A program made the position numbers and the translations under genes. Shown here in pieces: positions 15,883 through 39,061 of a DNA stretch of 64,000 bases; within the stretch, counting starts at the first letter, position 1; each line of letters opens with the position of its first letter. The notes under the pieces were generated by a model. The model made no database searches. It was not told the origin of the DNA and saw only the letters and a list, made by a program, of their open reading frames with translations. The stretch lies in NCBI GenBank assembly GCA_900450595.1, contig UGGS01000002.1, positions 496,001 through 560,000 of the forward strand, given 5' to 3'. This DNA comes from [Flavobacterium] thermophilum. GTDB lineage: Bacteria > Bacillota > Bacilli > Bacillales > Anoxybacillaceae.

Positions 15883-16620
15883 ATGGCCATTGACATTATC
15901 GGCGATATTCATGGCTGTCGCCGAGAATTTGTTGCGTTGACAGAAAAACTAGGGTATGTATGGAACGAAGGGATTCCCGTTCATCCTGGCGGCCGAAAGC
16001 TCGGGTTTGTCGGTGATTTGACCGATCGCGGCCCCGAGTCGCTAAACATGATTGAGATCGTCTCCGCCCTTGTCGAGCGAAAGCTGGCTTACTACGTGCC
16101 GGGCAACCATTGCAATAAGCTGTACCGCTTCTTTTTAGGGCGCAACGTGCAAATCGCCCATGGTCTTGAGACGACCGTCGCGGAATATCGCGCCTTGCCC
16201 CCGAGCGAACAGGAGATGGTCCGCCGCAAATTTATCCGCCTGTATGAGCAGGCGCCCCTGTACGCCGTTTTGGATGAGGGGCGCCTTGTCATCGCCCACG
16301 CCGGCATTCGCCATGATTATATCGGGCGGACGGATCAAAAAGTCAAGACGTTCGTCCTATACGGAGACATCACCGGCGAAACGAACCCGGACGGGACGCC
16401 GGTGCGCCGCGACTGGACGAAGCGGTATCGCGGCGACGCATGGGTCGTCTATGGCCATACGCCTGTCAAAACTCCGCGGTTTGTCGGACGAACCGTCAAC
16501 ATTGACACCGGCTGTGTATTCGGCGGTGCGCTCACTGCGTTGCGCTACCCGGAAATGGAGACCGTCTCGGTTCCGTCATCGATGCCATACGTTCCGGAAA
16601 AATTCCGTTCGTTCCCGTAA
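15883..16620 (+). CDS. prpE: Bis(5'-nucleosyl)-tetraphosphatase PrpE
   Basis: 245 residues, GAAAGGAG before the ATG. It is a metallophosphoesterase of the PPP type that hydrolyses Ap4A and can dephosphorylate proteins. Metal-ligand motifs appear in order: GDIHGC (7-12), [25 protein letters not shown] and [10 protein letters not shown]. The C-terminal [19 protein letters not shown] is typical of PrpE/PP1-like bacterial enzymes. In B. subtilis prpE (yjbP) is followed by yjbO, as here. The gene converges on yjbO; a mobile element has landed in the short gap. Confidence 0.93.
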
Positions 16621-16632
16621 CCGGCGCTTCAT

Positions 16633-17033
16633 CCTATTTCGCGCAGGAGACTCCCACTTCAACGACCAAAGGGAGTAAGTGGGAGAGGAATGCGCGTTCC
16701 CCTTTTCTTTTGTGTATGATAGAATAAAGGCGTGGAGAAAACCGTTTAATAAAGGCACTCCAATAACTGCTACTCGATGTATGGAGTTGGTTACAGGAAA
16801 CGTTGTAACCGTAAAACATCGAGCGTAGATCCGTCTGTTGTGTGTGGAAGCCAAGTACTGCCAACAGACACACCGAGAGAATCGGTAACGATGCAGGCAT
16901 GACCTGCGTCGTTGGGTAGTTGTCAACCTGCCCTGATGCAACCCCAAGTCAAGGAAGGAGGACGAAGTCCGCTTGTACTTCTGGGGAGTTGCAAGCCCCC
17001 ACTTCAAGCGTTAGCTAAGTGGGGGTAGTTGAC
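16633..17033 (+). mobile_element. Non-autonomous IS200/IS605-type element (401 bp, no protein gene)
   Basis: The left end carries a 9-bp palindrome (CTCCCACTT at 16651, AAGTGGGAG at 16677). The right end carries CCCCCACTT at 16996 and AAGTGGGGG at 17017, followed by GTAGTTGAC. The left end abuts TTCAT (16628-16632) and the right end finishes in TTGAC, the expected pair of cleavage sites for TnpA(Y1) transposition. Joining the flanks recreates a plausible empty site in which the neighbouring yjbO gene ends in TGA. It encodes no TnpA or TnpB, so it would have to be moved in trans. There are no terminal inverted repeats or target duplication, as expected for the family. Confidence 0.8.
16771..17033 (+). 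ncRNA. Putative omega-RNA-like structured RNA
   Basis: A chain of stem-loops fills the right part of the element: CTCGATGT/ACATCGAG (16773, 16816) enclosing GGTTAC/GTAACC; GTCTGTTG/CAACAGAC (16833, 16862); AACGATGCAGG/CCTGCGTCGTT (16887, 16903); GCAACCCCAAGT with ACTTCTGGGGAGTTGC (16938, 16977) enclosing GGAC-GAA-GTCC; then the right-end hairpin. TnpB omega RNAs are derived from the right end of such elements and take the flanking DNA as guide. Here the guide would begin GAGCGCACCGTTTCAATG. Transcription is not shown by sequence. Confidence 0.55.
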
Positions 17034-17929
17034 GAGCGCACCGTTTCAATGAGATGCGCCATGTCCCCGGGAAGCGGAGCGGCAAATGTCAACCAGCGGC
17101 GCGCAAACGGATGGAAAAACGAGAGCTGACGGCTATGGAGCGCCTGGCGGTCGATCATCTCCCGACTCCCGCCATAGAGGTCATCCCCAGCGAGCGGATG
17201 GCCAACATAAGCCAAATGGACGCGGATTTGGTGCGTACGTCCGGTTTCAAGCTGCAGCGACACGTGCGTATAGCCGCGAAGCCGCTCGAGCACCCGGAAA
17301 TGAGTGACCGCCGGCTTGCCGTCCTCCCGCACTTCGCGGGCGATGATGCTGTCTCCCCGGCGGCCGATCGGCGCATCAATCGTCCCTTCGTCATCAACCA
17401 TGACGCCGTGGCAAATGGCCTCATATGTGCGCGCCACCTTCCCTTTTTGCTGGAGCGTGGACAACAAATGGTGAACGTGGCGGTGCTTGGCAACGAGCAC
17501 AAGCCCGGACGTGTCGCGGTCCAATCTTGTCACAATATGGACGGTTGAATCGAGCCGCTGCCTTCGGTAATGGTGCAGCAGGCCGTTGGCAAGCGTTCCG
17601 CCCGGATGATGGCGCGACGGGATCGTGGCCAACCCGGCCGGTTTGTCAACGACAAGGATGTAATCATCTTCGTACACGATATGAAGCGGCATCTCTTCCG
17701 GATCCATCCAATCGCTCGTCCGCTCCGGCGGAAACACAACCGACAGCGTCTCACCGGCACGCAGCACATGGCGGACGGTGACGGGCCGACCGTCAACCAA
17801 CAGCGCCCCGCCATGGAATTTAATATCGGTAAGCGCCGTCCGCGAAATGCCGTTCTCTTGCAAAAACTGGCGCAGCAGCTTTCCGTCGTGCTGTTCATCG
17901 ATGGAAAAGGTCATGGTAAACGGCGGCAA
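17015..17929 (-). CDS. yjbO: RluD-family pseudouridine synthase YjbO, with element-derived C-terminus
   Basis: 304 residues from a TTG start after AGAAAGGTGA. An N-terminal S4-like domain (about 1-75) is followed by the pseudouridine synthase domain: ILVVDKPAGLATIPS, catalytic Asp137 in TRLDRDTSG, LETGRTHQIRVHLAYVGHPLAGDDLYGG. The last five residues (STTPT) and the TAG stop lie inside the right end of the IS605-like element; without it the gene would end ETVRS-TGA. The core is intact, so activity is probably kept. It is third in a relQ-nadK-yjbO order that matches B. subtilis yjbM-yjbN-yjbO. Confidence 0.9.
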   Translation of the reverse strand: MPPFTMTFSIDEQHDGKLLRQFLQENGISRTALTDIKFHGGALLVDGRPVTVRHVLRAGETLSVVFPPERTSDWMDPEEMPLHIVYEDDYILVVDKPAGLATIPSRHHPGGTLANGLLHHYRRQRLDSTVHIVTRLDRDTSGLVLVAKHRHVHHLLSTLQQKGKVARTYEAICHGVMVDDEGTIDAPIGRRGDSIIAREVREDGKPAVTHFRVLERLRGYTHVSLQLETGRTHQIRVHLAYVGHPLAGDDLYGGSREMIDRQALHSRQLSFFHPFARRWLTFAAPLPGDMAHLIETVRSSTTPT

Positions 17930-38794: not shown

Positions 38795-39061
38795 AATCTA
38801 GAATAACCGAGCGATGAGAAAGAAAAGTACATATGGCGATGCCTTCAGAGAGCTTGTGGACGGTGCGAACAAGCGGCTAGCCATATGGAATGGGCTTTCG
38901 AGCTTCCCGCCGAACCGGCGACGCAGTAGGCGGGGACGTTCCCCGCGTTACAGGGGCCATGCGCAAAGCATGGGCTGAGCGATTGCGCTTTTCCGCGCAA
39001 TAAGTAGGGTGGCACCGCGGTCCTACCGTCCCTATCAGAGGGCTGGCAGGACCTTTTTTAT
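38795..39061 (+). ncRNA. T-box leader riboswitch, tryptophan-specific
   Basis: The leader has stem I closed by CATATGGC / GCCATATG, the AG-box region CTTCAGAGAGCTTG, the specifier codon TGG at 38891-38893 in GGAATGGGCTT, and the invariant T-box AGGGTGGCACCGCGG at 39006-39020. A terminator (39019-39061, GGTCCT...AGGACC plus T-run) is mutually exclusive with the antiterminator. Uncharged tRNA-Trp pairs with TGG and the T-box, permitting read-through into trpS. Confidence 0.96.

What the first reader, a model, noticed from the sequence alone, without database searches (positions are those of the whole stretch)
16633..17033. Protein-less IS605-type element that looks like a mobile guide-RNA cassette
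The 401-bp element has IS200/IS605 ends (palindromes at both ends, TTCAT before the left end, TTGAC at the right) and no protein gene. It is filled by at least five nested stem-loops that end exactly at the right boundary, the layout of a TnpB omega RNA. Such elements would need TnpA and TnpB in trans. If the RNA is made, a TnpB encoded elsewhere could use it with the flank GAGCGCACCGTTTCAATG as guide, cutting empty sites preceded by TTCAT.
Basis: partly seen in the sequence, partly recalled or inferred. Interest (0 to 1): 0.85.

Follow-up and report, generated by a model that had tools for sequence, protein, structure and literature searches.

The report
Protein-less guide-RNA transposon in Geobacillus
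A 401-base jumping element without any protein gene carries a conserved structured RNA ending in a TnpB-type guide-RNA scaffold, and on its other strand a ribosome-binding site that may let it sit harmlessly at the start of genes.

Summary
The element is real and its ends are exact. It is a PATE (protein-less IS200/IS605-end element): six full copies here, its core in 21 of 41 family genomes. Its last 120 nt look like a TnpB omega-RNA scaffold: 91-96% identical to right ends of TnpB elements in sister genomes, same stem-1/pseudoknot topology as ISDra2, covarying helices. (1) A covarying 5' RNA domain (about 155 nt), seen only in PATEs here, sits between promoter-like sequence and scaffold, so this is no plain tnpB deletion. 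(2) The target TTCAT is ATGAA reversed: 25 of 67 insertions lie between Shine-Dalgarno and ATG of opposite-strand genes, once at pgk (184 of 3165 control sites). The element's opposite strand carries a Shine-Dalgarno beside the left hairpin in 63 of 67 PATEs and 0 of 9 TnpB elements. Transcription, TnpB use and TnpA mobilisation are inferred.

The parts
16628..16632 (+). TTCAT, left cleavage/target site outside the element (reverse complement of ATGAA)
   Evidence: found at 67 of 67 motif-selected copies distinct by flanks; a decayed copy, L257, has TTCCAT
16633..17033 (+). whole PATE, 401 bp
   Evidence: six full copies with same ends, different flanks; uninterrupted site in 12 of 14 genus genomes
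16640..16696 (+). left-end imperfect palindrome with internal guide GGAG (16646-16649)
   Evidence: fold; LE similarity to TnpB elements
16699..16707 (-). Shine-Dalgarno-like sequence on the opposite strand (GAAAAGGGG here; AGAAAGGAGG in 21 of 67 copies)
   Evidence: 63 of 67 PATEs have an exact match of 5 nt or more, 0 of 9 TTCAT-type TnpB elements; spacing
16717..16725 (+). extended -10-like sequence TGATAGAAT (TGATATAAT in several copies)
   Evidence: alignments; remote copies keep TATAAT; promoter not tested
16725..16886 (+). PATE-specific 5' RNA domain (model R1)
   Evidence: 102 places in 21 of 41 family genomes; covariation; no blastn match in the TnpB-element loci
16887..16913 (+). hairpin corresponding to the end of tnpB (stop-codon region) in TnpB elements
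   Evidence: alignments; 9 of 10 pairs change on both sides in helix 1
16914..17033 (+). TnpB omega-RNA-type scaffold, 120 nt; stem 1 GGGTAG/CTGCCC, pseudoknot GTCAAC 16922-16927 with GTTGAC 17028-17033
   Evidence: ISDra2 topology from PMC10097598
16991..16995 (+). right internal guide GCAAG
   Evidence: sequence; differs with the right cleavage site in the 420-aa TnpB family
16996..17025 (+). right-end imperfect palindrome
   Evidence: fold
17029..17033 (+). TTGAC right cleavage site
   Evidence: TTGAC in 64 of 66 distinct copies with a located right end, TTAAC and TTGAT in the other two
17034..17051 (+). flank that would be the guide (3' end of a pseudouridine synthase gene)
   Evidence: position only; gene by Pfam

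Best explanation
This is a PATE moved by an IS200/IS605 TnpA supplied in trans. From a promoter next to its left end it makes a roughly 305-nt RNA: a PATE-specific 5' domain followed by a TnpB omega-RNA scaffold that ends at the right end, so the next 16-20 nt of flank become the guide. Shown by sequence: ends, copies, empty site, homology of the scaffold to TnpB elements, covariation and pseudoknot topology. Inferred: transcription, loading by the 375-aa TnpB where a genome has it, and cutting of empty TTCAT sites so that the element is kept or copied back. In this genome the cognate TnpB is broken, so the RNA most likely has no partner. A second property may help it survive: its opposite strand carries a Shine-Dalgarno that the left hairpin would bring next to the ATG when it inserts at a start codon (inferred).
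For: copies, ends; empty site; TnpB elements share left and right ends; own TnpB remnant; 5' domain adjoins the scaffold in 32 of 35 loci tested; covariation; pseudoknot: ISDra2 -106..-102 with -6..-2, here -112..-107 with -6..-1; plus strand; intact Y1 TnpA in an element with similar hairpins; 84, 87-90, 92, 97 (start-codon insertions and opposite-strand Shine-Dalgarno).
Against: No RNA or protein data. A TnpB of at least 50% identity was not found (E up to 1e-60) in 10 of 21 genomes that carry the 5' domain, including G028 with 13 copies, so TnpB seems not to be needed for the PATE to persist. No Rfam match over threshold. TnpA was searched for only in the own genome. Stem 1 itself hardly varies, so it has no two-sided covariation.
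Confidence: 0.7

Rival explanations
1. A plain non-autonomous deletion derivative: TnpA recognises the ends, and the omega-RNA scaffold is only a leftover of the right end without function as an RNA.
For: Such derivatives are known (Halanaerobium PATE-like element; Haloquadratum PATEs). The right-end hairpin is needed for transposition anyway. In 10 of 21 PATE genomes no close TnpB was found.
Against: The 5' domain shows no match to tnpB, is found in three families and covaries with plus-strand wobble pairs. Helices far from the ends covary too.
Confidence: 0.2
2. The RNA serves something other than a TnpB nuclease, for example a distant TnpB-like protein, a host RNA-binding protein, or control of TnpA; the scaffold is shared by descent only.
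For: A large conserved 5' domain not seen in TnpB elements; persistence without a close TnpB.
Against: Pseudoknot and stem 1, which TnpB binds in ISDra2, are kept, and the RNA ends exactly at the guide junction.
Confidence: 0.15
3. An IscB/IsrB (HEARO-type) guide RNA on the minus strand.
For: Weak full-length HEARO match on the minus strand starting at 17033 (19 bits, E 0.15).
Against: Gathering score is 83; six other PATE loci give no HEARO match at E up to 1, while the genome's own IscB locus gives 153 bits. Wobble pairs favour the plus strand.
Confidence: 0.02

Closest known systems
PATEs of Haloquadratum and Halanaerobium (PMC3119063, passages read; PMC7290912, passages read)
   Same: IS605-type palindromes near both ends, too short for a transposase, no target duplication, many copies in Haloquadratum
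   Different: The one Halanaerobium case is LE + end of tnpB + RE; here the core is a conserved RNA domain without match to tnpB, and an opposite-strand Shine-Dalgarno is present
TnpB omega RNA, ISDra2 type (PMC10097598, passages read)
   Same: scaffold of 116-120 nt, stem 1, pseudoknot with the last nucleotides before the guide, TAM-like motif at the left flank
   Different: no tnpB in cis; extra 5' domain and a promoter-like sequence in place of tnpB mRNA; shorter stem-1 loop
Geobacillus stearothermophilus IS605/TnpB/IscB elements of Meers et al., Nature 2023 (recalled; not held)
   Same: same genus, TnpB and IscB elements together, PATEs as I recall also mentioned
   Different: could not be compared; whether these very PATEs or their RNA are described there is unknown to me
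IS608 guide/cleavage-site pairing (PMC5934647, abstract and passages read)
   Same: target set by a short guide 5' of the left hairpin; TTCAT goes with GGAG, TTTAT with GAAG, TTGAC with GCAAG, TTCAC with GGAAG
   Different: seen by comparison of families only; the remote copy L087 has TTAAC with GCAAG and does not fit
Free-standing IS605 stem loops in Borrelia plasmids (PMC2775950, abstract read)
   Same: IS605 hairpins without transposase, conserved as RNA and linked to genes
   Different: single hairpins at 3' ends of lipoprotein genes, not whole elements at start codons

Membership tests
PATE (protein-less IS200/IS605-end element) | subterminal palindromes, no terminal inverted repeats, no target duplication, no transposase gene | tested here: met
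PATE (protein-less IS200/IS605-end element) | several copies with the same ends at different sites | tested here: met
   six copies here; 68 insertions distinct by flanks in held loci, some of them orthologous
PATE (protein-less IS200/IS605-end element) | moved by TnpA in trans | not testable with these tools
   intact TnpA present in own genome; activity not testable
TnpB omega RNA | homology to the right end downstream of a tnpB gene | tested here: met
   91-96% identity over 147 nt to the right end of seven loci with a whole or partial 375-aa-type tnpB
TnpB omega RNA | stem 1 and pseudoknot with the 3' end before the guide | tested here: met
   against PMC10097598
TnpB omega RNA | made as RNA, bound by TnpB, guides cleavage | not testable with these tools
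   no RNA or protein data
TnpB omega RNA | cognate TnpB in the same genome | tested here: not met
   only an 81-aa remnant in the own genome; a TnpB of at least 50% identity in 11 of 21 genomes with the 5' domain
HEARO (IscB/IsrB) RNA | match to RF02033 above 83 bits | tested here: not met
   19 bits; no match in six other PATE loci, positive control 153 bits
IStron (group I intron + IS605) | group I intron core | tested here: not met
   no Rfam intron match at E up to 10

The most novel reading that the evidence does not exclude
A stealth guide-RNA transposon. On one strand it is a free-standing guide RNA with a new RNA domain, able to work in trans with TnpB; on the other it is a portable ribosome-binding site. 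Because its target is the reversed start codon ATGAA, it lands between Shine-Dalgarno and ATG, and its left-end hairpin, which TnpA uses as DNA, is reused as an RNA hairpin that brings the element's own Shine-Dalgarno to 8-11 nt from the ATG, so that even pgk stays expressed.
Probability: 0.3. Interest if true: 0.8.

Novelty: new variant of a known kind. Interest (0 to 1): 0.62.

Why it matters
It would show that the guide RNA of a transposon nuclease can become a mobile unit of its own, with an added RNA domain, and that an IS605-type element can evolve to be harmless at start codons. Both can be tested in ordinary laboratory strains.

Tried and rejected
HEARO/IscB RNA on the minus strand: weak match not repeated in relatives. 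Group I intron (IStron): no match. Protein remnant in the core: element 60-254 gave no blastn match to the TnpB elements. Use by the 420-aa TnpB of this genome: weak scaffold similarity (38.9 bits) but left flank TTTAT and right end TTCAC, so judged unlikely, not excluded. Carriers: no match among phage records; one viral contig holds a copy (L254); three plasmid records match.

Results against my reading: the contrast in start-codon insertions between PATEs (25 of 67) and TnpB elements (1 of 9) is not significant (p 0.15). Against control TTCAT sites it is (p 7e-14; the control count was slightly more lenient, as it also took open ORFs of 40 codons). Part of that excess is expected because insertions inside genes are lost. 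Restricted to points not covered by an ORF, it is 10 of 31 against 50 of 590 (p 3e-4). Some of the 67 are the same old insertion in two genomes (for example L158/L211, L161/L236), so they are not all independent. In the 25 cases the folded leader gives 8-11 nt effective spacing in 21, but 18, 24 and 40 nt in three, and in one no inner Shine-Dalgarno was found; of the 24 with one, it is fully unpaired in the predicted fold in only 15 and partly or wholly paired in 9. Because of this recount I lowered the novel case from 0.35 to 0.3. The window's own copy is not at a start codon.

Rows dropped: one insertion at a contig edge (L227) before the 67, 65 insertions had flanks long enough. In one search the left end of L146 was first placed on an internal TTCAT; searches give the right one. 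The PATE search in held loci used a motif and so misses decayed copies such as L255-L257; one search also required TTCAT, one search did not. In one search only 7 candidates per genome were scored, so weak members in the order may be missed.

Full report
OBSERVATION. The element at 16633-17033 is exactly as described: TTCAT before it, TTGAC at its end, palindromes near both ends. The genome (3.73 Mb, 5 contigs) holds six full copies, 96-100% identical, each with TTCAT on the left, TTGAC on the right, and different flanks. Twelve of 14 genomes of the genus match the joined flanks without a break, two have the element. The nearest empty allele, in G001, reads ...GACGCTTCAT|TCGCGCATCG... with no duplication; most other alleles have diverged there.

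NEIGHBOURS. Upstream is a metallophosphatase gene (15883-16620), downstream on the other strand a pseudouridine synthase gene. The stop codon of the latter now lies inside the element, so its last few residues come from the element's right end.

THE RIGHT END LOOKS LIKE A TnpB OMEGA-RNA SCAFFOLD. In sister genomes, elements of about 1.36-1.40 kb carry a 375-aa tnpB between a left end like element 5-59 and a right end like element 255-401. Seven loci with a whole or partial tnpB and one without (L101) match the right end at 91-96%. The match begins about 15 nt before the end of tnpB. The last 120 nt hold stem 1 (GGGTAG, -120 to -115, with CTGCCC, -106 to -101) and, in its loop, GTCAAC (-112 to -107), complementary to the last six bases GTTGAC. 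In ISDra2 the pseudoknot joins -106..-102 to -6..-2 and stem 1 joins -116..-111 to -91..-86 (PMC10097598, passages read): the same topology, with a longer loop. A covariance model of this part finds 29 of 41 family genomes. On 24 distinct rows, 22 of 43 pairs change on both sides and 96.9% of cells pair, against 86.8% in shuffles and 33-46% when slid; the pseudoknot helix has two such pairs of six (alignment fitted to the model). Stem 1 varies on one side only.

A PATE-SPECIFIC 5' DOMAIN. Element 60-254 has no blastn match in the TnpB-element loci. A model of 93-254 finds 102 places in 21 of 41 family genomes, and among 397 genomes of the order also two in other families. Of 35 loci with the domain given to the scaffold model, 32 have the scaffold adjoining it (one cut by a contig end, one weak); the other three are a truncated copy (L193) and two decayed copies (L256, L257). 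In remote copies (L248, Bacillus sp. CGMCC 1.16541; L268) the order is the same: TTCAT, left hairpin, TATAAT, 5' domain, scaffold, TTGAC. On 23 rows 17 of 34 pairs change on both sides (fitted alignment). The MAFFT alignment A1 (17 rows, both domains), folded independently, gives 18 of 75 pairs with such changes. G.U pairs outnumber A.C mismatches 64 to 21 in the 5' domain and 76 to 18 in the scaffold, which favours an RNA read from the plus strand. An extended -10-like sequence, TGATATAAT or close to it, lies just before the domain, so the expected RNA starts near 16731; this was not tested.

PARTNERS. The own genome has an intact TnpA (C1:542456; Y1_Tnp 145.6 bits) in an element with similar hairpins, two other Y1 matches over most of the domain and two fragments. 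The internal guides differ with the cleavage sites as the IS608 model predicts (PMC5934647, abstract and passages): TTCAT with GGAG, TTTAT with GAAG; TTGAC with GCAAG, TTCAC with GGAAG. L087 (TTAAC with GCAAG) does not fit. The cognate TnpB is missing: only residues 1-81 remain (95% identical), the nearest intact TnpB is 38% identical, and an orphan right end stands elsewhere (L007). Across the family 16 of 41 genomes have a match at E up to 1e-60, 15 of them at 50% identity or more (counted from its rows); 11 of the 21 genomes with the 5' domain are among these 15, and 4 of the 20 without. Known TnpBs trim the 5' side of their own mRNA to make the omega RNA (PMC10278001, passages), which is how a long PATE RNA could be trimmed too (inference).

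OPPOSITE STRAND. TTCAT is ATGAA reversed. Of 68 insertions distinct by flanks in held loci, 67 had a usable left flank; in 25 the ATG starts an ORF of at least 60 codons and the right flank, which would be the guide, carries a Shine-Dalgarno match of 4 nt or more; among 3165 other TTCAT sites 184 do. Twenty of the 25 ORFs were scanned: 19 match Pfam families, among them phosphoglycerate kinase, dUTPase, a dehydrogenase E1 component, ETF and, in the own genome, the queuosine gene (L005). In L173 the order is a gene that reads as gap by eye (not scanned), then AAGGAGGCCTTTCC, the PATE, then ATG of pgk. The PATE's opposite strand has AAAGGAGG, AAAGGGGG or similar just outside the left hairpin: an exact match of at least 5 nt to the consensus in 63 of 67, in 0 of 9 TTCAT-type TnpB elements. 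With the hairpin folded the spacing to ATG is 8-11 nt in 21 of 25 cases, but the Shine-Dalgarno is fully free in only 15 of 24 predicted folds. That the hairpin bridges the two and keeps genes translated is my inference; no expression data exist, and whether pgk has a second copy in G062 was not tested.

KNOWN AND NEW. PATEs are known. Free-standing omega RNAs, and PATEs in G. stearothermophilus, are, as I recall, in print, but the paper is not held. Among the rows listed by searches (top rows only, of an open-access library) I saw no title or abstract on a PATE-specific RNA domain or an opposite-strand ribosome-binding site; no paper was read in full. I therefore call it a new variant of a known kind.

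Noticed in passing
38805-39036: T-box leader (RF00230, 136 bits) on the plus strand.
   Followed up: no
L113 and some 28 similar left ends in the own genome: Many copies of a 420-aa TnpB element with left flank TTTAT and right end TTCAC in those inspected, whose left hairpin resembles that of the PATE.
   Followed up: partly
L114 (G000:C1:1153500-1157500): IscB gene with a strong HEARO RNA (153 bits) in the same genome, sharing the right-end hairpin.
   Followed up: partly
L103, L104, L320, L322-L324: A second TnpB family (373 aa, about 50% identical) shares the PATE's right end but has TTCAA, not TTCAT, at its left flank.
   Followed up: partly
L007 1501-1650: Orphan omega-RNA-like right end without left end, followed by a terminator-like inverted repeat by eye.
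   Followed up: no
17015-17033: The right end supplies a new stop codon to the neighbouring pseudouridine synthase gene.
   Followed up: partly
L254 (IMG/VR contig): A PATE copy on a contig classed as viral.
   Followed up: no
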